A stretch of 64,000 nucleotides of DNA, taken from Asterochloris sp. CNOR1. Lineage: Eukaryota; Chlorophyta; Trebouxiophyceae; Trebouxiales; Trebouxiaceae. Numbering within the stretch: position 1 is the first letter of the stretch; every line of letters starts with the position of its first letter. The position numbers and the translations under genes were made by a program. The stretch lies in contig OZ017759.1 of NCBI GenBank assembly GCA_963969365.1, forward strand, positions 2,108,001 through 2,172,000, given 5' to 3'. Of this stretch, positions 1 through 64,000 are shown piece after piece. A model generated the notes under the pieces. It had not been told where the DNA came from. It saw only the letters and a program-made list of their open reading frames with translations, and did no database searches.

Positions 1-148
1 CAGCATGCACAGGCTGCTCCAGCAAGGAGCACTCCATCCTGACTGGTGTTCCAAGCAGTTGTCTCCACGCTCACTCATGATGACCGCAGCTGTGAAAGCA
101 GCCCTGCCTGCTGATGCTTGATGTGCTCTGTCTGCAGCTATTGCTCAC
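1..148. other. intron sequence at left edge
   Basis: This lies downstream of the last visible exon of the PDR/ABCG transporter (minus strand), whose donor GTGAGC is at 148-143. It should be intron leading to the rest of the transporter outside the window. I see no further exon in it. Confidence 0.6.
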
Positions 149-3100
149 CAGGCTCTCAAAGAAGTCCATGATCTGCTCTCGAGGGCCGTGGTACACCAGG
201 TAGCCTGCAATGCAGCGCAAGAGGTGGTGTCAGCAGACGCGCCGACCACATGCACTGCCCAAAGGTCCAGCCTTGTGTCTACACAAACAAAGCTTTGGGC
301 CCACTATGTGCTCTGCCCAGGGGTCAGTATATGCAGAGACGGCAGTGAGCACATAGTGGGCACAGCAGCAGCGAGGAGAGGCTCGTCAAGGCTGAGCTGT
401 GGACCCATCAAACAAATTGTGTCCTTTAGGGCCTCTTAGCCCGCCGGAGCATGTGCTGCGGTGAGACCGACACCAGTCGGATGAAGTGGGCGATGTTGAG
501 CAATGGGGCAGCACAACCTCCTTAGACTCTGCAGCCCCGCTGTAGCTGACCAGAATCAAGTCCACAGCAACAGGGCCTCTCAGCCATAGCCCTTAGACAG
601 CAGCATGATGGTCCCCGCCAGCATGCCACCCAAGACAGAAGGAGGATGAGCTTCCACAGAATCAAAGCAGCTGCAGGGTGCAGGCTAAGCCTCCTAGGTC
701 TGCTCTCATGCAAGCATGTGCAATGTGACAGGCAATCAAGACTATGCAGGGACACATGCTGCAGGAGATCTCACTGCAGCACTCACCCTCAGACAGTAGC
801 AGGATGTCATCAAACAGGTCAAACGTCTCTGGTGCTGGCTGCAGCAGCGCGATCAGCATGGTGTAGTGCAGGGAGTGGGCGGTGTCCCGCAGCCACTTGC
901 AGATGCTGTACGTTGTGCTGCTGTCCAGCCCTGTGCTGATCTGCAGGAATGATGTGGCAGGCTGAGACTGCATGCTCTGCCTGTGCAGCCAGCATGAGAG
1001 CAGGCTGGGAGAGCGCAGAGCGTTATGGTGCTGATGCAGGTGTCATGCAAGCTGAAATGTCAAGGCCTCTGCAAAGCTGAAAGGTGCTGCAGCAGCCTGC
1101 CGTGACTGTGGTGATGAGCTGCTGTGAGCAGAGGCAGGCAGCAGCAGCAGCAGACATGGCAAATCACAGCAAACAATGAGACCCAGACAGGAAAGCAGCA
1201 GCAGGCAGAGATATTGAAGGTCTTGCAGGAACCCACCTCGTCCATAAACAGCACCCTCTTAGGGCCCACCAGCATCTCCCCTGCAGGCCACAGGGCACAA
1301 GTCAGACTGCCAGCTTACAGCAACATTGCGCATGGCCAGTTCACATCCGCACAGCAACTCTGCCAGTGAAGCTTGGCGCCTGGGGTCAGACACATGCCTC
1401 TGGCAGTTCTGGCAACTTAGCATGCTTGCCCTGCTACCACTGAATGGCTCATGTTCGAGGCCGGCAGAGCTGCTCTCAACAGCATACGAGCTAATTGTGG
1501 ACCGCATTGAGCGCCTGGCTTGCAGAGGCAGGGTTCTGGGGCCCCATTTGACGCCCAGCTTTGTATGTGGAAGGCTCTGGCCAACAGTCAGTTGCCAGGC
1601 TTCAAGGATCAAAAGGTGGAGAAGCGCCGCTGGCATCCTGAGATACCAAGGTGCTAAGCAGAGCTTTCAATCCTGGCAGGTGCAGGCCAGATGAGCCTCC
1701 AGCCCAGCATGAGCCTTCCTCCACACGATGTCAAGCGCTGGCTTTGGCCACAGCTGAAAGCCGGCAGCCTGGCATTCCTCACCCTACACAAGAGCTTCAC
1801 CACTCAGCACAGCCGGCCGTACCTGAGATCACCCAATGCTTCTGATTGCCATCGATGCCCTGCCTTACGGCTGTGCCCACCCCGCGCCGCCTTTCATGTG
1901 CTTACAGCCGTCGAGATCTCGTCCACTCAGCACAGCCACACTGCAAGAGCTAGGGCCTTACCTGAGGTCACACGCTTCTTCTGCCCGCCGCTGATGCCCC
2001 GCAGCATGGCGTTGCCCACCACTGTCTCAGCGCAGATGTCCAGCCCCAGCATCTTGACCACGTACTCCGTGTTCACGCTGTGCTGGGCACCCTCCAGGGT
2101 CTGCGCCTTCATCATGTCATCCACGTCCCAGTCTGCAGCACCAGTGTCATGAATCTGCAGTCCTCCACCATGCGGGCTTCGACTATGTCATCACTGTCCC
2201 AAGTCTGCGGGTCTGGCCTGCACCAGCTGGCAGCAGACAGCCAAAGACAGGGATGGCTGCAGGTGGTGAAAAGCGAAAGGGTTGTTGGCCAGCTGCCAGT
2301 TTGATGACACCATGCAGGAGCCACCCAGCTAAGCAGCACTTGACCATGGATGCTCTGCCTTTGCATCACTCACCAGGCTCGATGCCTTCATCCTTCTCCC
2401 GCTTGCAGATCTCGTTGTACTCAGCTGCAGCGCAGAGAGGAAAGCAGCGAAGTCAGGGTGGCGCTGCTGTGGCAATTCCAGCATACTCAGGCTGCGCAGT
2501 AGCGCCTGCGTTCTGTGCATTTGTGCTGACAGGCGTCGGCAGGACAAGCAGGGCATAAGGAAGGCGTGCTGGCGGCTGGTCACTTGAAGTTACACGCAGA
2601 TGGCTGTCCCTGGGACTGGAGAGCTGCAGACATCGACAGGAGTGGGTGCTCCAGGCCCCTCTGGCCCTCTGTGCCACATCGAATGCAGGGGTGGCGCAGC
2701 TAGACAGAGCAGCGTGCTTCAGCCCCTGCGGACCCTCTCCGCCACACAAGAGCAGCAGTGGGGCAGCTGCACAGTGATGCATGCTCCCGCATGCATGGGT
2801 GGGTCCTCTTTGCCAGACACACTTTGAAGTGCAATTGCCTCATCTGTGATTACTCACTTCCTCGAGCGCCCACTCCCTGCATGCGCGCCGAAAAGTCCAG
2901 GGTCTCCCGCACAGTCAGCTCAGGCCTGCGCAGTGGGACAGACTGGCTCGTGACAGGTGGCTCAGAAAATCTTCTGACACAAGCTAGGTATTGGTGTGGA
3001 GCGTGCAGTGCTTCAGCATGCCTGGCCAGCAAGTTGCCCATAGGTCATGCAGGGTTGACGAGGGTGGAAAGATGAGCTTTCTTTGTGCGTCTAACATGGA

Positions 3101-5551
3101 CCTGACGATGCCTGCAGTTCTACAACCTGTGAGACTGCTCACAATGCCCCATGTCTTGGTACCTGCTCAAGCAATGGGCTTGAAGGCAGCTCACATGTGC
3201 TGGTCCTCCTGCTCCACATACGCCGCTGTGCGCTGCGCCAGGAAGTCGTTGAAGGTGTGGCCATTGTAGGTCACCTTGCCATCAATCTGCAGGACAGGCA
3301 GGCCAAGCTTCAGGACCACAAGGTCATGAGGGACTTGCTCATCGCTTTGCATGCAAGCCAGTGGTGTGATGCGATGAGGCCAGCTGATTACCAGCCTTGC
3401 GCTCAGCATAGAAGGCAGTTTCAGACAGTTCAAGGCTGGCTTGCAGACCATGCGGCGCCAGCTTCCCACTCAGCACGCTGATCAGCACTGAGGCCCCCCA
3501 CTGCAGACAGACAGTGTTCCGCTGCCCACATGCAGGCACCACACACAGCCCCTGCAGCTCCCCTCCCACCTTGAGGCCATGCGGTGCCAGCTTCCCGCTC
3601 AGAGCCTTGAGCAGCGTGGACTTCCCAGCGGCCGGGGGGCCCAGCAGCAGGGTGGCCCTCCCAGGCTTCAGAACGGAGGTGATGTTGTTGAGGATGGTCA
3701 TCTTCACCTTCCTCGGCCGTAGCAGGCCCACCTTGAGGAAGGCGTACTGCAGCAGGCAGGGATGCAAGTTGTGAGGCACCCACCTGCTGTCAGGCGGGCA
3801 CAACATGCACCAGGGCTGGCAGCTGCAGCTTCAGCGCTTCTGCAGACAGGACACAAGTTGTCAGGTCTGCCAGTGGCAAGCTGGCGCAACCGGCATGGGC
3901 GCGGGGCAGCTGCAGCTTCAGCACTTTTGCACATTGGTGATCATCAGGTGAGGGTGGGTGCAAGGCGGCTGCCTCTCCTGTGACAGGCTAGCTGGACCTT
4001 CGGCTGACACGCCCCAGTTCCTTGCAGAGCAGCCTTCACAGCTGCACCTGCAGATGTCCCGGGGTGTCACAGGTGCATGGGAGCCTGGCTGCAGCAGCCG
4101 GTAGCAGCTCAGGCACCAGTCGTGGCTGCTGCAGCACTGGTTGCAGCTCATGCAGTGCTCGTGACAGCTGCGATCCAAGTATCGGCACCGCAGCTGGACG
4201 TACCAGCTGCTCCACGGCTGCCCTGCAGCCTCACCTCAAGCACTGCACGGTAGGCATTGAGGATGGTGGGCAGGTTGCGCCCGGTCTCAGCGTACACCTC
4301 GGTGTCGATGTGCAGCCCCTCAAAGCGCACCTCCACCGCTGGCACCTGCATGTCCACCCTGCACACAAGGGGCAGGCGAACCAATGCTCGCTGTGGACAC
4401 AGCAAAGGGGAGGACTGCTGAATCTGGGGGGCACCGCAGCTGGCAGCCGGGCGTCTGATCCGCATGCAGGGGCCTGTGTTTTGCCCCTGCAGGCAGGCTG
4501 TAATGACTTGATGCCAGCTCCTACAATTTGCATGCCATCTCTGCAGTTTTGAGGGCCAGGTCAATTGGGTAGAGTTGCTCAAGATCGCGGGTCAGTGGGC
4601 TGCCAACACAAGGCAGCCCCATAGCGGCGGCGTACACGACACATGTCCGATGTTGCACAGCAGATGCACATTAGGTCCAAAGCGTGCAGCGAGACCAGGG
4701 ACCAGCTGCCCTTGCAGCCTGCCGGCAAAGGTCAATTGGTAAGGCCCTGAAGCCGCCCAGGTGGCTGAGCCAGCAGGAGGATGCAAAGGGCAGGGATCCA
4801 TCCAGCCAATGAAGCAATAGGCCCCACGGTTGATGTCACGGCAGCTGAGGTCAGTCATGCTCCAGCGTGGGGCACCTAACATGCTGTGGGCAGCAATGTA
4901 GCCTGGCGCAGCAATGTTACCCACCACCAGCAGCACACCAGCGTGCCTGCACCGTGCAGCTGCCTTTTGCAGACGGGCCCACCTGCTGAAGCGCTGCTTC
5001 ATGTTGTCTAGCAGGATTTCAGCATCCTGCTCTTGCGTGCGCAGGGCTGTCAGCACCACCGCCTGCCTCTGGTCCAGAGTCAGAGGCCCAAGCACATCAG
5101 GCCTGTTCTCCTTGGTATTCTGCAGTAAGAGGGCATATAACATGAGTGAGGGATGACAACAGGGCTGGCGCATGCGTGCCATAACATGCCATGCAGCAAT
5201 GCAGGGCTGCTTAGGCAAGCAGACAAACAGGCAGCACCTTACAGCAGGCGTCCAACAGCATCATTGGCAGCCAGGGGGGTTGCTCAAATCAAGATAAGCG
5301 CCATGCGCCCATGCTGGCCAGGGCTGTGCTAAGGGAGCAATAGAGCCACAGACGCATGTCACCTGCTTTTGGGGCTTGCCATTGGATTGGGCAACCTCTT
5401 GCTTTGTGCTTTTGGGGGAGGAGCTGGGGCTGGAGCTGCCCGTCTCCAGATGCTCTGCTTTGTTCTCTGTGGCAGCTGATGTTCCCTCCTCTAGCCTGAC
5501 AGCAGCCTCGGCTGAGCCCCCAATGGGTTGGGCTACTGCCATGCTGTTCAT
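149..5551 (-). CDS. PDR-type ABC transporter (ABCG), N-terminal part
   Basis: Full-size ABCG (pleiotropic drug resistance) transporter, an ATP-driven exporter of lipophilic compounds, usually at the plasma membrane. Exons read on the minus strand: 5551-5363, 5119-4983, 4358-4235, 3746-3570, 3296/3286-3195, 2925-2858, 2424-2374, 2132-1962, 1280-1237, 940-787, 204-149; phases close and give about 421 residues. The start ATG at 5551 opens a Ser/Gln-rich leader. Exon 4 has Walker A (GPPAAGKST) after the family motif [12 protein letters not shown]. Then come [18 protein letters not shown], the signature SGGQKKRVT (exon 8), Walker [16 protein letters not shown], the H-loop-like region [14 protein letters not shown], and VYHGPRE. 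This order is diagnostic of PDR NBD1. The membrane domains and NBD2 would lie beyond position 1, so completeness cannot be judged. Two introns carry copies of exon ends. The exact substrate is unknown. Confidence 0.93.
1800..1855 (-). repeat. donor-edge ghost of transporter exon 8
   Basis: This copy resembles the end of the signature-motif exon (real donor at 1961). It keeps the ACTCAGCACAGCC flank and a degraded version of the exon end with a GTAC donor-like site. Confidence 0.65.
3430..3480 (-). repeat. donor-edge ghost of transporter exon 4
   Basis: A degenerate direct copy of the 3' end of exon 4 (real end at 3570) lies about 130 bp downstream within the intron. Read on the minus strand, both encode SGKLAPHGL, preceded by LKAL in the exon and by SVL in the copy. 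The splice donor is lost in the copy. Confidence 0.8.
3780..3935. repeat. tandem duplication in transporter intron 3
   Basis: Two copies of a roughly 85-bp unit with the core GGCAGCTGCAGCTTCAGC lie just before the acceptor side of exon 4. The copies differ at scattered positions. Confidence 0.6.
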
Positions 5552-8475: not shown

Positions 8476-8543
8476 TTGTCAGGGCTCAGCAGCACAGCGT
8501 GGTGCAGCAATGTCATGAGATGAAAATTCAGTAAAGAACATGA

Positions 8544-8658
8544 TCAAATGAATACTGAATCAGCGTTTGCCTTGTGCTGCTGTCTCTGCATAGCAAGTGG
8601 CCTATAAAACTCCCCCTGGGGCGCAAGCTGAAGCCCCAGAGGGCTACGCCCAGCACTG

Positions 8659-8707
<49 letters not shown>

Positions 8708-11700
8708 AGGTCAACAGAACAGCAGCCCCAGGTGCAGCACCTGGTTGGGTGCTGCTGGGACTTGCTGCAGCCCTGGTTGCCAGAGTCAGGTGTGTATTGA
8801 CATGCAGGTGTAAGCGGTACAGCGAAAAGAGTGATCTGAAGGCGTCAGACCCCAGCAGCTTGTTGGAAGTGGTCAGAATGCTCTGCTCATAGCGATACGC
8901 GCTCAGCAGGCCCAGCAGGGTGCCCTTGAAATCGCCAAAGCTGTCCTTGCTGAAGCGCGCAAGGATGCGCTCCCCAATGTCCTTCAGAGGGATGGACCCT
9001 GCACAGCCAGTAGGATGGTGCAATGGATGCCGTTTTTGATTGCTATCCTTCAGGGACGTGAACACGTGCCTGGTAGTGCAAATTGAGGCCAGTCCATGGC
9101 AGACTGCCACACTTCTGGGCCCTGCCCTTGACACGACATCGTCTCTAAATGGAACTTATGCAGCTCAGCTCTAAGTGCAATAGCTAGCATCTGATCCTTT
9201 ACATGCTACCTCCTTCATTGCTGTAAGTGTCATACAGGCTAATGCAGCAACACCAAGTCATACATACAAACACCACAGGCTGCTCCTGAATGGACTTTGG
9301 CATTCATCACCTGATGACGTCCTGCATGATGTCTGCCATAACCACCCACAGCTCCCTCTCAGGCGAGCACAAGTGCCCTCTTGATGTTCATGCCGCAGCT
9401 TATAACCCCACCCATCCCTGTTTGATGCCCGGTGCACGGTGGTTGCCACTTGTCAATGGTCTCAAACACTGCATGCTGCATGTTGTGCGGAGGCACCATC
9501 CAGAGATGTCACCCCAATAGCGCTCTTACATCGTAAGCTCCTCACCTGACCATGAAGCCTGCCATGGCCAGGATATGCCAGACACACTTATTCTGTATGC
9601 AAATCCAAGTTGCAGAGGCTTCCATTGCCCATGATGCAAGCCACTGCCGCAGAGAGCAACCAAGAAGCAACCCCCTCACCTGCTCTCACCATAATAAGAC
9701 TTTTCTCACCTGCCATGCTGGAGATGGTGTCTTCTATGAAGCCTGCCATGGCCTGCTCGAGGGCCTGCAGCTTTTCCTGGGCGGTGCTGGCCTGCGCCGC
9801 CTCTGCCTCGCCAGTCTGAGTCTGCCTGAGCTGGCTGGGGGTGGGCCGCTTCAGGGTGTCCTTCTGCGGCAACAGGGACAGCATGACGTCACCACATGCG
9901 CCTCAATGAGTGGGAGTGGGCAGCTTTGGGTGGCAGCAACAGGGTCGTGAAGGCACAGAGACGTCATTGACCAGTCGCACCTGAGCTTGACAGCTGTCCA
10001 CCAAGATGTGCATGGGAGCAGGGCACAGCTGTGCAGGGCACAGCTGTGCAAAGCACAGCGACACACAAGGGGACATCAAGAGCCTGTCCAAAGTTGTCAA
10101 AGGCCAGCTCCACAACCCTGGCAGGCAGTGCATATGGTTGGGATTCACAGTATGCACCCAGCAGGGCTGGAGAGCTACAATGACTCACAGGGGACACTGT
10201 TGACCAGTCCACGCTTGAGCTGGAAAGTCGCCCGCTGAGCTGCGCATTCAACTCCTCTGCAGGGGCAGGCATGCGCTGCTCCTGCTCCCGCAGCCCCCGC
10301 AGCTGGTCCACATAGCACTGCACCGCACCACAGAAACAATCTCAGATGGTAATGCCAGGGACATGAGCCACATCTGAAGCAAACAGGCGCTACTCCTGCA
10401 CCCTCAGCTTGCGCCTCTGCTGCAGCCATACAAATCACGATCAGTGTCTGTTGTTCACCAGCATGGCAGGCGCTCTTTCTGCGTCCTCACATTGTGCAGT
10501 TGGTCATTGTAGCACTGCATCCAGGACAGATATCGCCTAAGATGACCTTGGAAGGGACGTAAGCCACATGTCAGCTAGTGTGTCTTCCGGAAGCATGCAG
10601 GCACTGAGTTCCTGGCCTGCTTGGCAGGTGCTACAGCTCCACTCGGTGCGGCTTAAGCAGTGTTTCTCTGAGAAGCATGGCTTGCAGGCGGTGCTCCCGC
10701 TCCTTCAGGCCACTCAGCTGTTCCCTGTAACATGTTCAACAGTGCCAGCCTCGGCACCTTATCTTGTCAAAGTAGCATGACAGGCGGACCTCCTGTAACT
10801 CCAGGCCTCACATGTGATTCTGCAGCCGTCGCGGTGCAAGGTCAGTTGCAAGTGGCTAGGAAGCAGGCTGGTGCTGCTTCTGCACCCTCAGCATGTTTAG
10901 CCATGCAGCGCTTGGCTAAGTGTGCTGAGCTTTGAGCAGCAGGGATGTCGAGATTGCAGAAGTTGCATCATACAGCATGCAGCCAGCGCGATGCCTGGCA
11001 TCTTGAGCCCACAGCCACATCTTTCTTTAAGTGCAGCACCTCAGGCCACAACCTGTGCAGCCTGAGGCCCTGCAACTTGCCCATGCCGCTGACGACAAGA
11101 CTGCAGCAAAACCCAGAAGAAGTCATCCCCACTGATGTCCATCCTCAAACATGACCTGGCTCTGCATCTGCAGCCAGCCATACCCTTGTGCCACAGATTC
11201 AGCCCAGTGGCCGCCACCCACTTCACGCAGCTGGCCTCCTGCCTCTCAACTGCAGGACCTCAAATCACAGCCCCCTCAGCAGCCTGAGGACTCACCTGTA
11301 ACACCTCAAACCACAGCCCCTCAGCAGCCTGGGGCCCCGCGTCGCGCCCATGCCGCTGGCACAGAGCAACAGCGGCCCGCCAGGCGTCGCGCGTGGCAGC
11401 CAGCTCTGCATGCCGCGTGGAAGGGGCCTGTGCTGAAGGGTTACCGCTGGCCAGCAGCAGGCTTGGGGGCCGCCCACTCAGGCGCATTGCCCTGCCAGTG
11501 AGCGCCATCCTGCACAGCAATGACTGTGCACAATCATGACTGTGCATCACCCAGCCTCGGCAAGCTGCCTCTGCACAGCATAGGAAGTTACAGCAGGTAA
11601 CATTACAGCAGGTAACAACAGCGTTATGAAGTCAGTGGGATTGCAGGCTGCTCCAGGCATGCAAGGTCATGGCTGGACGACTGTGTTGCCCAGCAACAAG

Positions 11701-14700
11701 CATGCTGTGCTGTTCAGCTGACCATGCTCTGTTTCCCTGTTCACCTGCTTGTGGCAGGGCGTGGCAGCTGCAGCGCTCCGCGCTGCACTGCCTCCACCAG
11801 GGCAGTGTTGCAGGTGCGCACAGCGCTTGTGTACAGGTGAAGGGCGGCAGGAATGTCCCCAAGGCGCTCCAGAAGGTAGGCCTCTGCGTCATGTACCCCA
11901 TACTGCTGGCACAGGGGCAGGCAGGCCTCCACCCTGCAGCACTGGCAGGCCTTGCCACTCTGCGCCAGATTGGAATCCCCCACAAGACAGTGGTGTGCAG
12001 TGCAGGTGCGTGTCCACCAAGGTCTGCCAATGGGCCCCCCATGCTGCTGGCACAGGGGAGCGCAGGGCGCCACCCTGCAGCATCCCACATGGCTTCATCC
12101 TGAAGCAGATTTGCTGACAAGGTGAGCCTCTGCATGGCTTGGAGCCTCTGACATCTGATTTTAAACAGGTGGCACAAGATGGACAGGGTCAGTGCCCCGT
12201 CTCTGAAGGCTCACAGACATGCACAGCTTGCTGAGGTTCTCCCAGGTTTCCTTCACCTCACATCTCTGGCCCATGCAGGCTCAGAAGCCATTCACCTGTA
12301 AGCGCCGTGCCCCTCCAAGAAAGGAAGGACCGCCTTCGGCTCGTACTGGCACAGCAGGCATACAAACAGCTCGCAGACCTGCTGCTGCTGCAGCAGCTGG
12401 GCGTGCACGACGGCTGCGCCAGGCGCATTCCCTGCCTGGCCCGTCAGATGGTCCAGGGTCGATGCCGCAGTAGCACTGGAAGCCTCGGCGCGGCTGACCT
12501 GCAGCCAAGTCATTCAGCATGGAAAGACTCAGCACGAGAGATTTCGGTCGTCAGTAGGACGGGCGTCGGTGCTGCGCCATCATTGACTGCTGCAGCCGCC
12601 TTGTTGTTGCTTCAGCGACCCTGACAGCAGGGCTTCATCACCAGCACGCACACCCACCTGCAGCGCTGCCCGCAGGTAGCGGTACTGCAGCTCCGGCTGG
12701 GAGCCAAGAGCCCCCACAACGTGCGCATGGTCCTCAGGGAAGCGCTGCAGGACCAGCAGGGCTGCCTCCAAAGGGTCTGCTCCCACCAGGGAGGCTGCGC
12801 CGGCCAGCACTGCTTGGCGGAATGCAGCACATTGGGCTTGGGGCATCTGCCAAGCATCCTCCAAGACGTCGCGGATGTAGCTGAATGCTGCGTCTGCATG
12901 AGAGCACACGCGTCATGGTGTGACAGGCTTGCAGGCAATGGTAAACGCAGCAAGTGGGCTGCAGTGCATGGTGGGGAGGGTGGAAGAAGAGGTCATCGTC
13001 AGTGCCCAAAGCGCAGAGTGCCTCCTGTGAGAAGGCGCCATCTTCGCTCACAGAACTCTGCACCAAGCATCAATGCTGGCAAGGCCATCACCTGGAGCAG
13101 CCTTGATCCTAGACATGCAGTCCAGGGCGGCTGAGTAGTTGCCCGCCAGGTGGTGCACATGTGCCTCTGCCTGGAGGAAGCCAGCAGCTTGAGCAAGGCT
13201 CAGGACTCTGGCCTTGTCAACACCTGCACAGCCAGACAGGGGCCACCCTGCGTACAGCTTGCTCAGAAGCACGACAGGGTAGCATGGGCGTGTTGAGTGC
13301 GCCCACCTTGCGCCGTCTGGCCGCTGCACCAGGTGGGGGGGCTGATGGAGTGACAGCGGCAGCAGGGCACTGCAAAGCTGGCCTGGCCTATGTCAAGCAG
13401 GCCACCCTCGACAACAGTTACCTGACAAAGCAGCATGTGACTTGGATTGCGCCCCTGCCGCCTGCTGCAACCCTGCTTGGCGCAGCACTTGCACGAAGCG
13501 CTTCTCCTGCTCAGCTGCAGTGCCGGGTGACCTGGCAGCCAGCTGTTCCAGAATCTGCAGTGAAGGCGGGTTGGGCTTTGCTGCAGTACCGGCAAGGCTG
13601 CGCCAGGTGCGAGCATGTACCAGCTGCTCAGCATAACACGTATCTGCTTGTTTGCAGCCGCATTCAGAAGCAGGGTGGTATGCACTCTGGTATGTGTACC
13701 CGAGCACACCAGACCTCACCCTATTCATCAGCGCTGCAATGCTGGCAACATTCCAGTCCTGCTGCATGCATTTCAGCATGACAGCAAGATGTGCACAAGA
13801 TGTGCATGCAGGTGCTGAAGCCAAAAAGGTCATGGTAGGTGCTGACCTGCAGAGTGAGCATCGAAGATGCCACAGCTCTGCCCTCAGCAATCAGCTCCTG
13901 CAGAAACTGGAGGGCGGCAGCTGATGCATCTGCTGTCTCGTTGCCACTGCTCCTGCAAGCAGAGGCACAGCCCTGTCCTGCTGTTTGGGATGGCAACCAT
14001 CTAGCTTCAAGCATACTGCACAGCAGCAGCTAGCCCTGCTCCCACCAGTTATCATTTGAGCAATTGCTGACAGTCAGTCAGGGCCACAGATGACAGTGAA
14101 CTCTGGAACGGCTGTAGCCAAGCATGCGCAGTTTACATGCACTTGGTGAGGTTGTTTGGCAGGCAGTGATGCTGGGTGGGACAAAGTGTACCTGAAGGCG
14201 CCATCCTGCAGCAGCCCTGACAGGGCATCGACTGCCACTTGTGTGGCGCTGCGCTCTGCAGAGGTGCTGGCCTGCACCTGTAGGCCAGCAGCCTGCAGCA
14301 GCTCCCCCTCAAGGGCATCCCAGCCCGTGAGCCCCTCTCGCATGATCAAAACCAGTGCATCTGCAGAGCACAACAGGCTCACTCATCCTCGTTTGCTGAT
14401 TTCACAAAGCAAACATGGCTATACAAGCCGCCATCTCATCCAGGTCAGCCCATCATCCACGTGGCTTCAATTGGCTGTGTCCTGATGGAGCATGGTCATG
14501 TGAGCTAGCAATGCATGGTCTGAAACATTTTCTGCTTGTGGTGTAAACACAATAGCAAGCCTCTCATGAGTCAGGGCGGCACATAGTTGATACAGCCCTG
14601 GCACTGACCAAGTCAGGGACAGAAGTGCAGAATTGGGCACATTGCTGCCAGCTCAGCACGCAGCTGCTGCGACCTGCCACCAGCAGGAAAACGATGTCCA

Positions 14701-15381: not shown

Positions 15382-15412
<31 letters not shown>

Positions 15413-46130: not shown

Positions 46131-46139
46131 CAGCCAGCT

Positions 46140-46669: not shown

Positions 46670-47590
46670 GATGGCTGTGGCTGCAAGCCTCGCGCTGGAC
46701 TTGGTCTGCATGGCAGTGGAATACAGAAGAGTTTGCCATGGCTGGGGCTTGCTGCCTTCAAATACATTGCAGGCAGCAGCCCTGGCTCGACCACTCTGGT
46801 GTCCACTGTCACTCAGACAGGGTTGAGCGCGTTGCCTGGTACTCATTGCGGTGCCGGTCTGGTAGCTTGAGGTGGTGCCTGCTGCTGGCATTGCACATAG
46901 TTGAGGCTGCACGCCTCGCGCTGAAATCGGTCTGCATGGCTGTGGAATACAGAAGGAATTGCCACAGCTGGGGCTTGCCTCCTTCAAACACATTGCATGC
47001 AGCAGCCCTGGCTTGGCCACTCTGGTGTCCGACGTCATTCAGGCAGGGTTGAGCGCGTTGCCGGGGGTTCACTTCCAAGCAGGACCAATCAACAGCTTGT
47101 GGCTGCTGCTGGCATCGAGGCTGCTTCTCGGCATGGTTGTGGCCTGCTGCCCTCGCGCTGGACTTGGTCTGCGTGTCCCTGGATCCAGAAGGCTGGCTGT
47201 GCTTGGGCCCTGCTTCCTGCAAACACTTTGCAGGCCCCTGCAAAGACCCCTGCTTGGGCCCCCCTTGCTCCTCCAGTGTCACTCAGGCAGTGTTGAGCGC
47301 GTTTGCCTCTTGTTCACCTTGGTGCATGACTGGGCGCTTGAGGTTGTGGCTGCTGCTGGCATTTAGGTTTGGCATGGCTAAGGCAGCAAGCCTCGCGCTG
47401 GACATCTGCATGGCAGTGGATCACAGAAGAGTTTGCCATGGCTGGGGCTTGCCTCCTGCAAATTCAGTGCAGGCAGCCCTGGCCTGACCACTTTGCTGTC
47501 CACTGCCACTCAGGCAGGGTTGAGCACGTTGCCTGGTGTTCACTTCAGTGCAGATTCAACTGCCTCAGCTCTTGGCAGCTGCTGGCATTG
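46670..47590. repeat. tandem repeat, about 230-bp unit, four copies
   Basis: The phase marker TTGAGCGCGTTGCC recurs at 46823, 47049, 47293 and 47520, spacings 226, 244 and 227 bp. Units share CTCGCGCTGGACTTGGTCTG and CATGGCTGGGGCTTGC-type sequence, each diverged by substitutions and small indels. A degenerate fifth fragment lies near 48056. Confidence 0.93.
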
Positions 47591-47631
47591 ACACTGCTGA
47601 TTGGAGCTTACCAATATTGGTTGCTTGCTGT

Positions 47632-47870
47632 GAGTGCCACGCCCTGCCGCCTGTTCTCATGCTTTCGTTGCCGCAGGCGTCTCTGGTGCCTGCATCGACA
47701 AGAGCGCTGGGACATGCTGAGCAAGAGTCTGGCTCCTGCACCTATCTGCGAGTGCCACGCCCTGCTGCCTGTTTTCGTGCTTTTGTTGCCGCAGGCATCT
47801 CTGGTGCCTGCAGCGTCAAAAGCGCTGGAACATGCTGAGCACAAGTGTGGCGCCTTGCACACTCGGCACA
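47632..47870. repeat. 118-bp tandem repeat, two copies plus a distant third
   Basis: Units start GAGTGCCACGCCCTGC at 47632 and 47750. Each contains GTTGCCGCAGGC-TCTCTGGTGCCTGCA, which looks like a splice acceptor. A third decayed copy lies at about 48260-48340. Confidence 0.9.
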
Positions 47871-55200: not shown

Positions 55201-58200
55201 TCAGTCTGCTTCACAGGGCAGCATGAGCCAGCCAAGACTGTGCAGTCCTCAGGGAAGCTTGCAAACAGTGTGCGGCAGACTTCGAACATGCGTGAAGCTC
55301 AGAAAGCAAGCAGGTGGTGCTGTGAGACAAGACGGCAGCCACCAGATGTTGCTCTTCCATGCACTTCAGATGGCTTGAGCAGCTAACCTATGGAGGGCTG
55401 CGAGGTCATGCCACTCATGCTGTCAATGCAGGCGTCGATTATGTCTGCCCCAGCCTCTGCAGCTGCGATCTGGGTAGCCACTCCAGTGCCAGCTGAGTCA
55501 TGGGTGTGGACATGGATGGCAAGGTCTGGGAACTGCTTTCTGCAAGCAGGGCAGAACGGGATGGTCATGTGGGTATTTAGGACGTGTGGCTGCGTCTACA
55601 GACAGCTTGTGCAGGGGCTGCATAGCTGAGCATTTGCAGCTTGGCAAGGCAGCAACAGAGCGATGAATTGTTGCCGCAGCTGTGCCAAGGCTGGGTGTAC
55701 CAAAGACCAGGAAAATATGTCTTCAGGCACAATAGTGCAGCCAGGTGGTGGGACCATCCGCAGTCACTGCAGCCTGCAACAGTCTAATCCCACTTGACCT
55801 CCTCAGGACCTGCAGTTGGGGTTGCTGCCATCAGCAGCTCTGTTGGCCTAGTTGCAAAGCACGCAGCAGCCCTTCTTCGACAAGGTGTGCCGTACATGAC
55901 ATCGGGTGAGGGAACAGACGCACCCTTGACCACCAAGCTTTTGATAGGGTGGCCTGCTCAGCTGCTGGTTGTGAGGGCAGTATGGCCAAGACACGCAGGC
56001 AAGACATATTTTGATGCAATGCCTGCGTACTGCAAGTGCAGTCCTGGGACGGCGCACCTGAGCATGGTGGCTTCAGCAGATGGCCTCAGACTTTCCACCA
56101 ATGCAGGGAGTGGTGCTTATGCTTTCAGCAGACCTCAGATAGAGGACATGACACCGCCGCCAGTGTTGCAGATGCAGAAGCCTACCTGACATCGCCAACA
56201 AGGCATGGTGGCTGCTTGCATTTGAAAAGGCCTGCCGACTGCTAACAACGAAAGCATACGCGCCACACCAGCTCTAGAAGACTGCTTAGGAGTCCGCACT
56301 GACAACAGACTATGCAAGGAGCCAAGTCAGCCTAGTGGTTTGCTGGAGGGCGTCATGACCATGATGGCGTTTCACATGTCCACCGGGTCGTCACATCAGC
56401 CACAACCTTGTGCGCACTCTCACCTGAGGGTGCTGATGAGCATGGTGGCGGCTCGCGGCTTCAACAGGCCTGCCATGTCCTTGATGCCCAGCACGTGAAT
56501 GCCATGCTCCACCAGCTTCTCAGCCAGGTCCACGTAGTAATCCAGTGTATACTGCAGAAGGTGAACCAGGGGCAGTTGAAATGGTCCGTCAAAGAGTGCT
56601 GAGACCAGGGACACAGCAGTCGCCTCAGTTCTGCGCTTGGCATTTGCAGCTAGCAACAGGCAAACTGGCTGACATGGCACTGTCACTGATGCTGCAACAC
56701 CAAGGTGGGGAGACTGGCCTCTCAATACTCCAAGGTGTCTGCAGCACACTACAGACAGCTAGCAGCAGCAACCTTGCTTAGTACACATGAAGCCAGAAGG
56801 CAAGGCACCCAGCACAGGCGGAGCCATGCAACCATTGCAAGTTGATGTGCAATGCATGGGGATGGCATCAGCTGAAGAGCCCACTGCTGAAGCAGGGCAC
56901 ATGCCGCCCTGGTGCTGCAGATGCTGCCGATCCTGTGTGGCGGTTGGAAGACCCAGATGCAGGCGGCTGTCTTTGTGAATGCCAGGGGCCTCACCTTCGT
57001 CCTGTTTGGGTTGGTGATGTCGCCAGTGTAGCAGATGGTGCCCTCGGCCACACCACCAGCCCTGCAGCGCAGACAGGACTGCACATCAGTGCCTTGCCTG
57101 TGGTAGTGTGCCAACATTCTGATGCCATGCAGCCTCTTTTGTGCTGTGACACTTTACGCATGTGGCATGTACTTACTCAAGTACTGTGCTGTTCCATGAA
57201 AGAGGGCGCACGTGATGGTTGTCATGTGTACTGTAGGCTGACAGTGCAGCAGCAGCTGCAGGGCAATGCCTTGCCCCGCAGTCAAGGTGCAGCAGGCTCT
57301 GCACCAGGCTTACTTTGTCACAGTGTCAATCCCAAACAAGATGTTGTCCACCTGCAGCCACACAGGACTGCTGAGCTCAGACTTCACAGGATTCAACAGA
57401 TTAAAGGTCACCAGTGACCAGCAGGACAGAAAACGCAAGGCCAGATTTTTAACGGGATCAAGTCGGCTGCTGCTGGAAGGGTACACTTTTTTGCAGAGGC
57501 AACAATGACCAAATGACGTGCAGCTGTAGTCCTCTGCAAGAGCAGTGAAGCCTCACAGCTGGCAAGAAGCACCTCCAAGTTGCAAATGCAGGCGGATGAA
57601 GCTGCTGGAGGCAAACGCAGCAGCCCTGGGCCCACTCACATAGTTCAGGGAGTCAAATACCCGGAAGATGTCCATGCCAGCTCGTTTTGCTTCTGCCACA
57701 AAGGAGTACACTACATTATCTGGGTAGCTGGTATACCCCACTGCAGCAATTTGCGCACAGCTTTGACACACATATGCTTAGGATGTGGCTGAGCGGACGC
57801 TGCATGGGATGTCAAAGCAAACAGCACAGCTCACCATGCCTGGGCTGCTTTCAGGAGTCCCCAGGACAGGGTCTGGCATCACCCCCAGCCACAAAGGGCT
57901 GCATAACGCTGTGCTCACAACAGCTGAAGGCATGAGCAGCAGGTCGCTGCCAGGCACACATGAGGCATGCTTGAACACCACATCAGCACAGCAGTGCTGC
58001 AGCAGATGTGTGACCTGCTTACCTGCATTGGCGCCTCTGAGCAACATCTGCAGAGCAGAAAGGAGCGCCCTCATGCAGACGGTGCCTCCTATCAAGCTGG
58101 CAAGCTGTTGATCAATCGATAACACACCACCAGACACGTTGCGTGAGAAAGAGATACAATTGCAGTCTGGGGGGCACAATGAACGGGCATGGACTTGCAC

Positions 58201-61200
58201 GTCACATAGGCTAACCCCTGAGCAGTCCACCCTCGACCTGCCAAGGCATTCCCTCTCAGTCTCAAGCACCACACACCTGGAAGGGGATGTGGGGAATCTG
58301 TTCCCTGAGGGCCTCCAGCCGTCGCCAGGGATCCTCGTGCAGGAAGCGCAGGGCCACATCAAAGGTGGCCCCGCCCCAGCACTCCAGAGAAGCGGCATTC
58401 CGCATGACATGCCCTGTGGCGGGGGCTGCCCTCAGCAGGTCATGCGTGCGCACCCGTGTGGCCAGCAGGCTCTGATGGGCGTCCCGCCTGCAGCAAACCC
58501 AGGTTGTGGCGAGTGTATTCAGCCGGCCGCAGGTGTGCAACCCCTTGGGCAGCTGGCTCAGGTGTGGGCCCCTTGTCCCAGAACAAGCCAACACAAGGGT
58601 GGCCCGAGCGGCACCCGGCTGGCAGCATATTCACACTGAGGAGGGTCGCCCTGCCAGTGGACCCACAACTCAGACCAGGCTTGGAACAATGCACCAACAC
58701 CAACACCAGAATGCAGCACATTTGCCAAAGGTGTGGGCGACAGGAAGTCCAATGATGGAAGCAGTACAGACCCAAGTGATACACTCGAGAACGGGAGCAC
58801 AGCCTATGACAGCTGGCACTGCTGTCATAGACTTTCTCCTATTTTGTCAACCGATCTGGCCTTGTATGGGCCTTCCACACCTAGCAACTGCCCCTCAGTC
58901 ACATGGTGGACTTCGTAAACAGCAGCCCCTCTTGTTCTCCACTGCCTTGGCCCAGGGCATTACTGATGTCTGTTGTTGCCATTCTAAGGGCTTGCGCACA
59001 GCAGCACAGCTGCGCCCCAACTCACCGGATGGTGACAGCATCCACAAGCATCACTTGCTTGTGCATCGTGTCCTGATGTCACCCTGGTGTCCTCGACCAC
59101 CAGGCACACCTTGCAACAGGCCCTGCCGACACTGCACCCCACTCAGACTTACATTGTCGTGTCCGTCAACAGGAGACCCTTGTGCTCCCGCACCGCCTTT
59201 GCCCAGGCCTCTGGCCCTTGCTGCGTCAGCAGGTCCCGCCACCCAGTCTTCTGCTGGACATCCATGCCTGGGATGACGGGCAGGGCGGGGGTGATCCGCG
59301 AGGGCGGCGCTCCCACTGCCCCGGGGTGCGACGGCCCATTCACCACCTGCAGGTTGGAAAGGTCGGGTTGCTGCCACTGCATGGTCTCTGACATGAAGAC
59401 GACACAACAAGGTGGCGCCTCCACTGCCTCTGGGCGTCTGCCCCTTTGATTGCCTCCACGGGGAAGCAGAAAGAGTGGTGCCATGCCACTCAGGCAGGCC
59501 GAGCCATCTTCCAAGACGGATGAGCAGTTGAGACATGGCTGCGACAGAGTGACACCTGATGGCATAGTGAACAAGCCTGGTAGGGGGGCTAGGGTTTAGG
59601 GTGTAGGGTTCGCTTTGCTGCCACGCGTCAACATCGTCAACAGAGTTGGGAGTCTGCTGCACGCAGGGTCAACGAGCTCAGCTCACCTGGTCCGCCAGGA
59701 ACTGCAGCACTTTTGAGCTCTGCCCTTCCGCCTCTAACCCGCCCCTAAACTCAAACAGCTGGGGGTTGTCCCCAATGAAGGAGGTGGTTGCCTTGCCCGT
59801 AAGGAACTCAGGGTGCTTCAGAACCTGCACGCACAGGTGGAGGGTTGAGAGCCTGGCAGCAATGCAGCAGCATAGGACCCCGAGCAGCTTGTACAGGAAG
59901 CCTGGCATTCTTCAGGGAGCTTTGCAGCCCACATTTGGTAGAGCACCCAGCGGATGCAGCATGCGTTTGGTCCAGAGAGGCAGCAAGGCTGACCATGCAC
60001 ATGGGCAAGCTGTGCTGGCCACATGCGGAGGTTGACAGTCAGCAATCAGCACAGAAGCCAGCATATGCAGCACACAGTCAAACAGGCACGCTAATGCTTC
60101 GGCAGCAAAGCCTAGGAGGGAACCAGCAAGTAAACATGCAGGGACCTAGATGCATCTCTTTGCAAATGTAACCCTCAAGAGTCCTTACATTTTCCAAAAA
60201 CAGGATGTTGGTCTTGATGCCCCTGCACGGCAGCAATCCAGATGTTCCAGCACAGTGCAGCAAATCGTGATGTTTGGCGGCAACACAGGCTGTTCACTTG
60301 CCCTTGTGCAACACATAGTGCATCTGACGAGGTCAGAAGGCTGCATAGGGCAACTGCATGCCAGCTTGCCCGCTGCAAAAGCCAAGGTGGGCCCAAAGCT
60401 AGTGGCGTCTGCAATGCCGCGCAACAGCAGATACTGCTTGCAGGATACTGCACAGCTCCGCTGTATGCCACACAGCATGGCCGCTGATGTCAAGTCCCAT
60501 GCCAGCTTGCCTGATGTGGAACTCATACAGGGCCCGCTGCATTTTCTGGACAGCGTGCAAGAAGGTGTTGCTTGAGGCAATGACCTGCAGCCAAATAATG
60601 AATGGTTTTCTATCCCAGGCTGAATGCAGTCATACTTTTGACGGCTTTACTACCCAAATGCATTCAGCCCTTGGCAGCAGACAAAGCCGCTGCAGACAAG
60701 AGGCTACAGCAGCAAGGCAGCTGACATCCAGACATAGAGTACTGCACGGCCAGCATACAGCTGGTCCTGGCATACACTCAGCACTAAGGTGTGTCACTGG
60801 GCAGAAAGAAAGTTCCTTGCAGGTCAAAGTGGCACCACAGACGGGTGCACACCTGAATCTACAGCCTGTCGGAGTAGGGCAACACCACCTTCGCATGAGC
60901 TTATCCGCTGCAGCAATGGGCAAGGCAGCCAGCTGGCTCACCTTCACTAGCAGGCTGTCAAAGTAGGGTGACACCACATTCCCAGCTGTCATGGCTCCAT
61001 CCAAGCGGATGCCCGGGCCGCCAGGGGAGCGGTAGGCCTGGATCCTGCCAGTGTCAGGCTGCAGGCAACAGTTCCAAGTCCTGTGGGAGGCTTGCAGACC
61101 AGGTGCACTCGCATGAGCAGATGACGTCAAGGAGACAGCAGGCATGAGATCTGCTCAAGTCGAGGGCTGCAGGCGCCGCCACCACTTGTCGGCGCTTGGC

Positions 61201-63576
61201 ACACTTAGCATGTTTATCAGTGATGGCTTGCTGAGAGGCAGACAGACCTCCTTTCCTAGAGGGAGCAGACTGCTGCAGAAGCACAGATCTGCGGGCTACC
61301 CACTCATGCTACAGCTGCAGTGAGGCCCACACATTGCAGCCAGGTGCAGTAGTCTTGGGTGCTGGGGTGCAGCCAGGGTGTTCTGGCCTGAATCTAAGGA
61401 GTTGTGGCTGACTGCAGTGGCCCTATTGCTGCCGAGTCCATTGGGCAGCCTGCCTGGCAGCAGTGCTTGCTTACAACAATGCGCAGGAGGTATGCGAACA
61501 CATTGATGAATCCCTGCCAGAGTGGACTTCTAATCAACAGCCTTGCAAGTCATCAGCACTGGTCGGCATGCCAACAGCAGCTACTTGCAATCCTCTCAGC
61601 CAAGGCGTCTGCAAGAGCCTCGCAAAATCTGCCAAAAAACTTGCGCCCCAGCTCCAGCCCAGCCTGTGCTCGAACATGCCAGCGATACACTGCTCACCTG
61701 GAAGTTCCGCTCTGGGTCTTCGCAGGTCACTCGGCACTGGATGGCATATCCCTTGGGCAGGGGGATGCTGTCCTGCTTGCCAATGCCCAGATCTGAGAGC
61801 GTAGCGCCTCCAGCAATCTTGATCTGGGCTTGCACAAGATCCACTCCAGTGACCTCCTCGGTGACTGTGTGCTCCACCTGCACGGCAGCGATGGCAGCCG
61901 GCCTGCGCTCACACTGTGGGCTTGCAAGACCTCTACTGTGTGCTTCATCAGGGGCTGCAGCGGCCACATGTGAGGGAGAGGAACAGTTGCACACATGCTG
62001 AGATGGTGCATCGCAGTGTGGGCTGAAGAGGGAGCCACCAGCGCCACATGCAAATGGCAGTGCTGCAGTAATGCTGGCATGGGTGCAGGCAGGCTTCTAT
62101 GCTGCCATAAATGTGCAACACAGTGCGACCCAGCTTGGGTTGCAGGCCATGGAGCTCGCCCATCCCTACACGCGACTGCCCTCGCTGACGGCAAAACACG
62201 TGCTGAAGGTTGTGTTGGCACCTTGCAGAGGTGGAACCTGCTGCAGCTGGCAATCTGCTGGCACTGTTTCACCCGGTCGGTCTGCCTCTTTCATTCCAAA
62301 CAGGCACCATAAGGAGATTGGGCCAGCAATACAGCCTCACCTGGATGCGAGGGTTGACTTCCAGAAAGAAGTACTCGCCGTTCTTGTCCACCATGAACTC
62401 TACTGTTCCAGCGTTCCTGTAGTCAACGTGCTTTGCCAGCTTGACAGCGTCTGCATGCAGCCGGGTCCTGACCTCAGGGTCCAGCCCATAGGCAGGCGCC
62501 ATCTCCACCACCTGCAGAGCATTGCTGTTTGTTGTTGAGGGTGCAGCCAACAGGCATCTGGGGGCAGCTTGCCCTGCCGTCAGGCTCAAGCCAACCCTGA
62601 TACCTGCAGGGCAGTGGACTACCATCAAATGTGCAGGCGGCAGATCTACGCCCTGATGTCAGGGCCCACCCCATAGGTAAGCTCAATCTCTACCACCTGC
62701 AGAGCTGCGCCGCTATGCCCAAATGCCTTCCATTGGGTCTGTGTGCAGACTGGCCTGACCTCAGGGCCCCTAGGCAGGCGCCATCTCCACCACCTGCCTT
62801 GAAGTGCTGCTTTGGGGCTGTGCAGCCACCAACTGTCAAGTGTTGGCTTCGTCTCTGGGAAAACGCCGCAGACGAACAGGTGCAATCCTAGACCCCTGCA
62901 GAGCAATTGCAACAATGCAGCCGGCGGCATGGCTCTGGCCTCTGGGAGCACGCTATGGCATCTGAGTGCAGCACTTTGGCAGATGCATGTTATACGCCTG
63001 CAATGCAGCACCACCATATGCGCCCCTGTTTCTTCCCCACACCGCGAAGGAGGATGCATGCAGCCAGCAGGCCATGGCCCCTGATGTGGGCACTGTTACA
63101 ACGACTTGGCTGAGGTGGCTGCTGCCCGCACCTGCACAACAAGCAGCAGGCAGGCCCAGCCAGAACCCGTGCAAACACCTGCGGACCTGGTGACACTGCG
63201 AGTCTGCACGTCAAGCACCTAGATATGACAGCAGGAGGCTCTCTCACCATCTGGTGCTTTGTTGCACAGACTGGTGCAGCTGCTGCACACAGATCAGGCT
63301 GTTTAGACTCAAGCAGGCAGTCACAGTGCACACTCCAACATTTGCATGGCCTCCTCTGTTTGCTCGTGCTGGCCTGGAAGCAGGTAGTTTGCCATGTGCA
63401 AGGCGGTGCAGATCTGCACGGTGGTGCAAACTCTGCACTGTAGGACTGTCACCTTTTGGTGCCTCCGCTGCACAGAGCAGTCCCTCTCATAGAGGTGCAC
63501 CACATTGCCGTGGTGGTCTGCCAGGATCTGAACTTCAATGTGGCGAGGGTCTTCCACGTATCGCTCAATGAACATT
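49249..63576 (-). CDS. PYC: pyruvate carboxylase, N-terminus outside window
   Basis: A biotin enzyme making oxaloacetate from pyruvate and bicarbonate with ATP. 26 exons, minus strand: 63576-63453, 62511-62341, 61877-61698, 61058-60942, 60584-60511, 60222-60189, 59824-59687, 59346-59153, 58487-58277, 58047-58023, 57740-57640, 57351-57314, 57061-56995, 56551-56424, 55539-55388, 55106-55040, 54630-54504, 53904-53818, 53283-53174, 52802-52706, 52257-52094, 51388-51247, 50681-50584, 50005-49926, 49553-49425, 49322-49249. All phases close (975 residues). Biotin carboxylase: [37 protein letters not shown]. Carboxyltransferase: [45 protein letters not shown]. Biotin site AMKMETAV. About 200 N-terminal residues (ATP-grasp start, any transit peptide) are beyond the right edge, so mitochondrial targeting cannot be judged. 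Two GC-AG introns occur. Confidence 0.96.
52300..52465 (-). repeat. degenerate acceptor-region copies, carboxylase intron before 52257
   Basis: The acceptor region GGCCCTGCAGGTACCAGACACGGCTGTAC at 52252-52280 is echoed near 52350 as AGCCCTGCAGGTGCCAGAACTGGCTCTAC. A GGGCT-TGCCTCC segment also recurs near 52310 and 52455. Confidence 0.7.
53284..53470 (-). repeat. two acceptor-edge ghosts, exact 89-bp steps
   Basis: The real exon starts CTGCAG/GTGACCCCCAGCAGCAAG at 53283 (VTPSSK). Copies start at 53372 (CTGCAG/GTGACCACCAGCAGAAAG, VTTSRK) and 53461 (TGTAG/GTGACCATTCTGAGCAAG, VTILSK). Confidence 0.92.
55014..55157. repeat. 13-mer direct repeats flanking a 67-nt exon
   Basis: GGGACTGTCTTGC (coding strand) occurs just after the donor and again just before the acceptor of exon 55106-55040, about 129 bp apart. 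Confidence 0.8.
62640..62800 (-). repeat. two acceptor-edge ghosts of carboxylase exon 62511
   Basis: The real start is CTGCAG/GTGGTGGAGATGGCGCCTG, coding [15 protein letters not shown]. The copy at 62696 reads [15 protein letters not shown] after CTGCAG. The copy at 62793 reads GTGGTGGAGATGGCGCCTG, then a stop and a small deletion. Confidence 0.93.
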
Positions 63577-64000
63577 CTGCAGGGAGCATGTGGAGACATG
63601 AGGAGCTCCGGCTGAAATCCCAGCACCTTGAGCCTGTTTGCGTCTGCACATGCTCTACAAGGCACTCAACCTGTGAAGGTGCCTGTTGAGCAGACAAAAG
63701 GCAACCTTCAAGCGCTGTCATGACAAGGTTGAGCACAAGCATTAGCAGCTGCAGGGAAGCGTTTGTGGGTGCAGTGTAGCACACCTCCTGATTGCTTTGT
63801 GCTTTATTGATTGCAGAGGACTGCCGAGGCGGGCATGCTGAGCATGAACATTACACGGTGACTTTGCTGGCATCGGCCGCACCACCTGGCACGCAGCAAA
63901 GCAGCCAGCAGATGTCCAGCTGGCACCACACCTATAACAGCATAATGTCTCCTGAGCACTAAATCTCCCAGATGCAGACTGGCACCATGCAAAGTGCAGC
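63577..64000. other. intron at right edge, no exon recognised
   Basis: This is upstream of the first visible carboxylase exon. No further biotin carboxylase sequence (ATP-grasp N-terminal part) could be found, so those exons lie outside the window. Confidence 0.55.

What the first reader, a model, noticed from the sequence alone, without database searches (positions are those of the whole stretch)
1..64000. Introns carry decayed tandem copies of the adjacent exon edges (exon-edge ghosts)
In the transporter, VPS8, MTR4, DUF1664 and carboxylase genes, introns repeatedly hold direct-orientation copies of 15-60 bp that span a splice junction plus the adjoining exon. Acceptor-edge copies always lie upstream of the real acceptor and donor-edge copies downstream of the real donor, at steps of about 45-250 bp. 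I count at least 14 introns and about 25-30 copies by eye. Copies show frameshifts, stops and damaged splice sites. This suggests introns lengthen by repeated tandem duplication across splice junctions, with selection keeping only one copy spliced. I know of no standard name for this pattern; its novelty is my inference.
Basis: partly seen in the sequence, partly recalled or inferred. Interest (0 to 1): 0.9.

Follow-up and report, generated by a model that had tools for sequence, protein, structure and literature searches.

The report
Fossil exon-edge copies inside introns
Introns of this unnamed eukaryote hold old, decayed copies of the ends of the exons beside them; they look like leftovers of a general process that duplicates short DNA stretches locally, and they stay recognisable because the working exon copy is kept unchanged by selection.

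Summary
Over 344 kb, 54 of 946 exon edges have a copy in the adjoining intron; length-matched foreign introns give 3.33, inverted introns 3, reversed introns 0. Placement is not a tautology: edges match the adjoining intron in 41 of 464 cases, the intron at the exon's other end in 2 of 464, exon middles in 1 of 327.

The reading is partly right. Local direct duplication is general, not aimed at splice junctions: intron-intron pairs are about as dense as exon-intron pairs. In simulations, junction-blind duplication, neutral decay and constraint on the real exon alone come close to the counts, anchoring and exon reach. The nearest runs have units of 55-65 bp, filler between copies, and a rate that has fallen; constant-rate runs fit badly. 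Ghost splice sites are not specifically broken (16 of 28 GT, 10 of 17 AG intact).

The mutation class, small break-repair duplications, is known; the abundance, bounded exon reach and lack of young copies make this a new variant. No RNA and no related genome were available.

The parts
1823..1881 (-). donor-edge copy, step 139, ABC transporter intron 1281-1961
   Evidence: score 23, 69% identity; its intron flank also matches, score 16
1727..1783 (-). second donor-edge copy in intron 1281-1961, step 237
   Evidence: score 21, 68%
3445..3486 (-). donor-edge copy, step 129, ABC transporter intron 3287-3569
   Evidence: score 26, 81%; a paralogue (L030) has a 95-bp intron at this place (length counted by me)
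9552..9569 (-). donor-edge copy, step 184, VPS8 intron 8999-9709
   Evidence: 18 of 18 identical, 26 bp from junction; weak case
11032..11091 (-). donor-edge copy, step 265, VPS8 intron 9864-11295
   Evidence: score 29, 76%
11250..11289 (-). donor-edge copy, step 46, same intron
   Evidence: score 25, 85%
12037..12074 (-). acceptor-edge copy, step 141, VPS8 intron 11934-12295
   Evidence: score 26, 84%, CTGCAG intact
16443..16500 (-). donor-edge copy, step 127, VPS8 intron 16165-16562
   Evidence: score 21, 71%
21250..21313 (-). acceptor-edge copy, step 88, VPS8 intron 21226-21878
   Evidence: score 16, 62%; borderline
26558..26585 (+). donor-edge copy, step 341, MTR4 intron 26257-27152
   Evidence: score 16; borderline
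30002..30055 (+). acceptor-edge copy, step 111, MTR4 intron 29798-30106
   Evidence: score 16; borderline
31850..31876 (+). acceptor-edge copy, step 260, MTR4 intron 31590-32083
   Evidence: score 15, 26 bp from junction; could be chance
32362..32416 (+). donor-edge copy, step 102, MTR4 intron 32325-32916
   Evidence: score 22, 73%
33432..33461 (+). acceptor-edge copy, step 99, MTR4 intron 33062-33530
   Evidence: score 20, 83%
33337..33379 (+). acceptor-edge copy, step 194, same intron
   Evidence: score 18, 74%
33863..33913 (+). donor-edge copy, step 188, MTR4 intron 33726-34634
   Evidence: score 37, 86%, GT intact
34014..34063 (+). donor-edge copy, step 343, same intron
   Evidence: score 29, 82%
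33762..33787 (+). donor-edge copy, step 62, same intron
   Evidence: score 18, 85%
43657..43695 (-). acceptor-edge copy, step 249, DUF1664 intron 43447-44081
   Evidence: score 23, 79%, CTGCAG intact
56203..56236 (-). donor-edge copy, step 237, pyruvate carboxylase intron 55540-56423
   Evidence: score 18, 80%
58903..58956 (-). donor-edge copy, step 250, pyruvate carboxylase intron 58488-59152
   Evidence: score 22, 73%; flank matches, score 14
58519..58572 (-). acceptor-edge copy, step 87, same intron
   Evidence: score 18, 67%
60862..60895 (-). donor-edge copy, step 89, pyruvate carboxylase intron 60585-60941
   Evidence: score 20, 79%
62737..62793 (-). acceptor-edge copy, step 282, pyruvate carboxylase intron upstream of exon 62341-62511
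   Evidence: score 35, 83%; the upstream end of this intron model is unreliable at the window edge (the model there carries stops)
62652..62696 (-). acceptor-edge copy, step 185, same intron
   Evidence: score 27, 80%
34245..34485 (.). younger intron-internal tandem duplication, 2 x 121 bp at 86%: taken as the same process, no exon involved
27567..27721 (.). youngest intron-internal array in the window, 72-bp unit at 96%

Best explanation
The copies are remains of a general local duplication process, probably error-prone repair of staggered breaks. Overhangs of roughly 55-65 nt are filled in, so the stretch is duplicated in direct orientation, often with filler DNA between the two copies. It acts without regard to splice sites. 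Events inside exons are removed by selection. Events in introns within about 60 bp of a junction copy the exon edge and leave the working exon intact, because the outermost splice sites still give the right message. The exon-like copy then decays neutrally while the real exon is held by coding constraint, so exon-edge copies stay visible long after their intron flanks have lost similarity. Each event lengthens the intron. Most events are old, which suggests the rate has fallen. Shown: excess, direct orientation, junction anchoring, bounded exon reach, decay pattern, similar density of intron-internal pairs. Inferred: break repair, filler, the fall in rate, selection.
For: Local direct repeats in the window run at 2.0-6.6 per Mb-lag (score >=18) at lags 20-299 and 0-0.03 at lags of 1000 or more, in direct rather than inverted orientation. 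Exon-intron and intron-intron pair rates are alike: 75 and 63 per 10 Mb of pairs at lags 60-149. Full-length younger tandem duplications exist in introns and between genes. Mismatches at codon positions 1, 2, 3 = 0.187, 0.202, 0.270 over 53 hits, so the real exon is constrained and the copy is not. Exon reach: median 45.5 bp, 90% within 64, 72 hits; exon middles 1 of 327. Of the models scored on 17 statistics, a junction-blind one with 55-65 bp units, 20-60 bp filler and a falling rate came closest (four nearest of 170 runs, ad hoc distance 16.0-17.8); plain tandem duplication reached 51.6 (150 runs); constant rate within the filler model 131. Some copies keep matching intron flanks: 3 of 55 with score >=13 against 0.19 expected. 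Spacers are not dispersed repeats: 4 of 57 with non-local hits against 29 of 171 control intron pieces.
Against: The fit is not perfect: the three nearest runs give median exon-intron lags of 109-126 against 136, 17-25 strong copies against 15, and flank shares (>=10) of 0.21-0.30 against 0.35. Filler is inferred from simulation only and adds two free parameters. On 11 statistics a plain 40-bp tandem model (12.5) and a local copy-paste model (18.9) were nearest; the first then failed on lags and the second on junction anchoring, but copy-paste was not re-scored on all 17. Conditional on exon similarity, flanks were less similar than plain tandem duplication predicts (z 3.9-6.2). Pairs at lags under 80 are 50 of 134 intron-intron but 5 of 88 exon-intron; part of this may be detection, the rest is unexplained. 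At lags 200-299 pairs between genes are denser than intron pairs (16 in 4.73 M against 9 in 7.89 M). The fall in rate rests on the scarcity of young pairs (8 of 133 intron-intron, 8 of 86 exon-intron) and could be an assembly effect or reflect divergence at birth. Break repair itself is not seen.
Confidence: 0.6

Rival explanations
1. Plain tandem duplication of 80-130 bp segments (no filler), followed by neutral decay, with selection removing copies that carry much exon.
For: The lag distribution of exon-intron pairs matches units near 130 bp; younger full-length tandem duplications exist; with an exon cap of 55 bp the reach is reproduced.
Against: Without a cap, 42-56% of copies should reach over 70 bp into the exon; 7% of 72 do. 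With the cap, the nearest run makes flanks too similar (0.40 against 0.13) and exon-intron pairs too few (43 against 86).
Confidence: 0.2
2. Duplication aimed at splice junctions, for example through transcription or splicing intermediates.
For: Similarity is centred on the junction; exon middles give 1 of 327; ungapped similarity ends within about 10 bp on the intron side.
Against: Intron-internal pairs are about equally dense; constraint on one copy plus short units reproduces the anchoring in junction-blind simulations; three of 55 flanks clearly continue.
Confidence: 0.07
3. The copies are kept because they work, as decoy or alternative splice sites or regulatory exons.
For: 11 of 28 donor copies score at least 4, within the range of real donors (5th and 25th percentile 2.2 and 4.6), and 6 of 17 acceptor copies likewise.
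Against: Codon positions 1 and 2 decay alike; the splice dinucleotides are no better kept than nearby exon bases.
Confidence: 0.05
4. Insertion of a mobile element or introner with a long target-site duplication.
For: A unit plus spacer geometry fits.
Against: Spacers match elsewhere in 344 kb less often than control intron pieces, 4 of 57 against 29 of 171; the rest of the genome was not searched with them.
Confidence: 0.04

Closest known systems
Tandem duplication across an intron-exon boundary, potato RNA-dependent RNA polymerase gene (PMC4974935; abstract seen)
   Same: A local duplication spans an intron-exon boundary; most splicing signals are inherited from the parent structure.
   Different: There a new intron arose in one recent event; here copies sit inside existing introns, look old, and occur at several percent of all edges examined.
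[quoted passage not shown] Gao and Lynch 2009 and Hellsten 2011 seen only in its reference list)
   Same: Duplication of segments carrying splice signals changes gene structure.
   Different: The classic model duplicates an exonic AGGT segment to make a new intron; here existing introns appear to grow.
Small tandem duplications from repair of staggered breaks (PMC8355091, passages seen; Vaughn and Bennetzen 2014 on rice, seen only in its reference list)
   Same: Direct duplications under 100 bp, tied to breaks from nearby nicks on opposite strands, named as a contributor to genome expansion.
   Different: Here inferred from fossils; filler between copies and a falling rate are inferred from simulation; splice junctions only make the copies visible.
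Introners (PMC9860276, search listing and start of abstract seen)
   Same: Mass change of introns in a lineage.
   Different: No dispersed shared element found in 344 kb.

Membership tests
Small local duplications by break repair | direct orientation, local | tested here: met
   60/117/43 direct against 3/12/0 inverted hits; excess only at short lags
Small local duplications by break repair | unit below about 100 bp | tested here: inconclusive
   exon reach 45.5 bp median; nearest-fit units 55-65 bp; some visible duplications have steps of 118-226 bp
Small local duplications by break repair | dependence on end-joining or Pol alpha-primase | not testable with these tools
   needs mutants
[quoted passage not shown]
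   copies lie inside introns that have their own outer sites; exon middles are not copied (1 of 327)
[quoted passage not shown]
   no related eukaryote genome held
Introners | similar sequence dispersed in many introns | tested here: not met
   spacers 4 of 57 with non-local hits, controls 29 of 171, within 344 kb
Tandemly duplicated (mutually exclusive) exons | whole exon copied with both splice sites | tested here: not met
   one edge copied, 90% of hits within 64 bp although 69 of 72 exons are at least 100 bp
Tandemly duplicated (mutually exclusive) exons | use in RNA | not testable with these tools
   no RNA data

The most novel reading that the evidence does not exclude
Introns of this lineage grew in a past wave of break-repair insertions that each duplicated about 60 bp of target, a wave that has largely ended. 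Exon edges serve as constrained reference copies, so each exon-edge fossil can be dated one-sidedly, giving a clock for intron growth.
Probability: 0.3. Interest if true: 0.65.

Novelty: new variant of a known kind. Interest (0 to 1): 0.5.

Why it matters
How introns change length is mostly inferred from alignments that fail beyond close relatives (general knowledge). Exon-edge fossils are readable inside one genome, because one copy is held by selection, and they would let the rate, size and age of intron-lengthening events be measured directly. Of 28 donor copies that reach the junction, 11 still look usable, so they also predict where mis-splicing could arise.

Tried and rejected
Steady-state duplication: the nearest constant-rate tandem run scored 106 on 11 statistics and the nearest constant-rate filler run 131 on 17; constant-rate copy-paste runs were not printed, and one search had none. 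Local copy-paste of random patches: near on 11 statistics (18.9) but puts 0.32-0.57 of copies more than 25 bp from the junction against 0.06 seen (four runs). Plain tandem units of 40 bp: nearest on 11 statistics (12.5) but lags far too short. Inverted or compositional explanation: rejected. Mobile element: no support within 344 kb. Presence/absence in paralogues: only old ABC transporter paralogues were found (exon-only DNA matches of 73-84%; protein matches, the C16 one 61%); one (L030) has a 95-bp intron where the window has 283 bp (my count), suggestive only. The ungapped flank profile at first looked like exon-only copying; gapped tests and simulation showed it is only partly loss of register. 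Simple age-uniform decay runs also gave far more young copies than seen. The HMM's 3-bp exon in MTR4 and a 21-bp exon in the C1 stretch look like model artefacts caused by copies. Results before and after retraining differ slightly (374 introns; 481 introns); both are reported. Paper searches; two returned nothing, and no listing showed a direct precedent. Passages on intron length in Chlamydomonas (PMC8226300) hold no 'tandem duplication'.

Full report
Setting. The window is C14:2108001-2172000 of a 56.4 Mb genome in 21 contigs.

Genes. A both-strand splice-aware HMM, self-trained on these stretches, learned donors CAG|GTGAG and acceptors CTGCAG|G and converged. Retrained on 344 kb it gives 481 introns: 88 window, 296 C1, 97 C6; 451 GT and 30 GC donors. 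Pfam, given 6 of the 7 predicted window proteins, supports ABC transporter, MTR4, DUF1664 and pyruvate carboxylase, the last split in two by the HMM; a 739-residue piece of the seventh is VPS8. The protein the HMM predicts at 36893-39448 had no Pfam hit; 'desaturase' is my recall of its histidine motifs. The MTR4 model aligns to human MTR4 (printed to near its end): at five of its six ghost-bearing introns (26257, 29798, 32325, 33062, 33726) the exons join without a sizeable insert; the sixth (31590) falls in a gapped stretch and is unresolved. So there the exon and not the ghost is the coding copy.

Observation. Exon edges (up to 120 bp) were compared with their own intron by gapped local alignment. 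Score >=16: 54 of 946 edges, against 3.33 for length-matched foreign introns (30 permutations, maximum 9), 3 inverted, 0 reversed. The earlier set of 374 introns gave 49 of 734 against 2.35 (20 permutations), 2 inverted, 0 reversed. By stretch: window 18 of 175 (0.83 expected), C1 32 of 582 (1.90), C6 4 of 189 (0.60, maximum 3). For internal exons of at least 130 bp, edges match the adjoining intron in 41 of 464 cases, the intron at the other end of the same exon in 2 of 464, and exon middles match the nearest intron in 1 of 327. Window: 25 copies at >=15 in 18 introns; those at 15-16 may be chance.

Anatomy. Over 72 hits at >=16, the exon arm ends a median 1 bp from the junction, reaches a median 45.5 bp into the exon (90% within 64; exon of 100 bp or more in 69 of 72), with a median step of 146 bp. 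In ungapped register similarity fades within about 10 bp on the intron side (63 hits). With gaps, 14 of 55 flanks score >=10 (6.2 expected) and 3 of 55 >=13 (0.19 expected); after retraining the shares are 0.35 and 0.13 of 69 (null not recomputed). Several introns hold two or three copies; in three the spacing is 95-98 bp (steps 139/237, 99/194, 185/282). Mismatches at codon positions 1, 2, 3 are 120/643, 131/649 and 176/651 (53 hits >=17): equal decay at 1 and 2, excess at 3, as expected if the copy is free and the exon is coding. GT is intact in 16 of 28 donor copies and AG in 10 of 17 acceptor copies that come within 3 bp of the junction.

Is it about junctions? Ungapped direct repeats (score >=18, low complexity not removed) run at 2.0-6.6 per Mb-lag in the window at lags 20-299 and 0-0.03 at lags of 1000 or more; C1 gives 0.65-5.8 and 0.01-0.04. 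Per position pair at lags 60-149, exon-intron pairs number 44 in 5.87 M and intron-intron pairs 54 in 8.61 M, against 10 in 4.81 M between genes and 0 in 0.65 M gene-end pairs (window and C1; sums mine). Other lags differ: at 20-59 exon-intron pairs are sparser than intron pairs (3 in 1.09 M against 24 in 4.62 M), and at 200-299 pairs between genes are denser (16 in 4.73 M against 9 in 7.89 M). So the process is general in introns and not concentrated at exon edges. Younger full-length duplications occur in introns and between genes.

Simulation. Real exon sets and shuffled introns were evolved under substitutions, indels, deletions and uniform local duplications, and run through the same pipeline. 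The ratio of exon-intron to intron-intron pairs is 0.31-0.66 in six constant-rate runs and 0.36-1.38 in six falling-rate runs; 86:133 = 0.65 is seen. Those constant-rate runs give 24-47% young intron pairs against 8 of 133 seen. In grids of 128 (11 statistics), 150 and 170 runs (17 statistics) the nearest run on 17 statistics is a junction-blind duplication of 65-bp units with 40-bp filler and a rate that fell 0.18 substitutions per site ago (distance 16.0); the next three have 55-65 bp units, 20-60 bp filler and a fall 0.12-0.18 ago. Plain tandem reached 51.6; constant-rate filler 131. The distance weights are mine and the grids are coarse, so these are rankings, not probabilities.

Reading. 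I take the copies to be survivors of break-repair duplications. A break in the intron within one unit of the junction duplicates the exon edge without harm; the same event deeper in the intron leaves no constrained copy and fades sooner; in the exon it is purged. This explains the anchoring, the bounded reach, the one-sided flank loss and the direct orientation without any junction-seeking step. Not explained: the scarcity of exon-intron pairs at lags under 80 (5 of 88, against 50 of 134 intron-intron) beyond what detection may cost, and the poorer C6 stretch. Introns with copies are longer (median 552 against 288), and the share with a copy rises from 14 of 150 (250-400 bp) to 37 of 155 (>=400 bp); longer introns also have more room, so this is support, not proof. 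Detectable arms (score >=16, chance hits included) cover 6.2-10.3% of intron bases in the three stretches.

Prior knowledge. Duplication across an intron-exon boundary is reported for a potato gene (PMC4974935, abstract). Tandem genomic duplication is a listed route of intron gain (PMC3443670, passages). PMC8355091 (passages) calls small tandem duplications the commonest short insertions in human DNA and ties them to staggered breaks. I found no report of exon-edge fossils as a mass feature of introns; the library is open-access only.

Noticed in passing
window 8660-8707: Perfect (CTG)16 run inside the predicted last VPS8 exon (8544-8998), read as poly-alanine on the minus strand.
   Followed up: no
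window 46671-46839 and 47628-47860: Two younger local duplications (step 226 at 85%; 2 x 118 bp at 86%) in a 5.6-kb stretch without a predicted gene.
   Followed up: no
L016:7741-8060 (C1:657741-658060): A 40-bp array of exon-edge copies inside an intron of a gene whose protein looks, from memory, like an SbcD-SbcC fusion; the last copy keeps an intact donor.
   Followed up: partly
481 predicted introns in window, C1 and C6 stretches: 30 of 481 predicted donors are GC; the HMM allows GC, and none was checked against RNA.
   Followed up: no
L030 (C16:1215357-1218441): ABC transporter paralogue with a 95-bp intron where the window gene has 283 bp and a ghost (length counted by me).
   Followed up: partly
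C6:500001-580000 (L021-L028): Exon-edge copies are rarer here (4 of 97 introns) than in the window (17 of 88); cause unknown.
   Followed up: no
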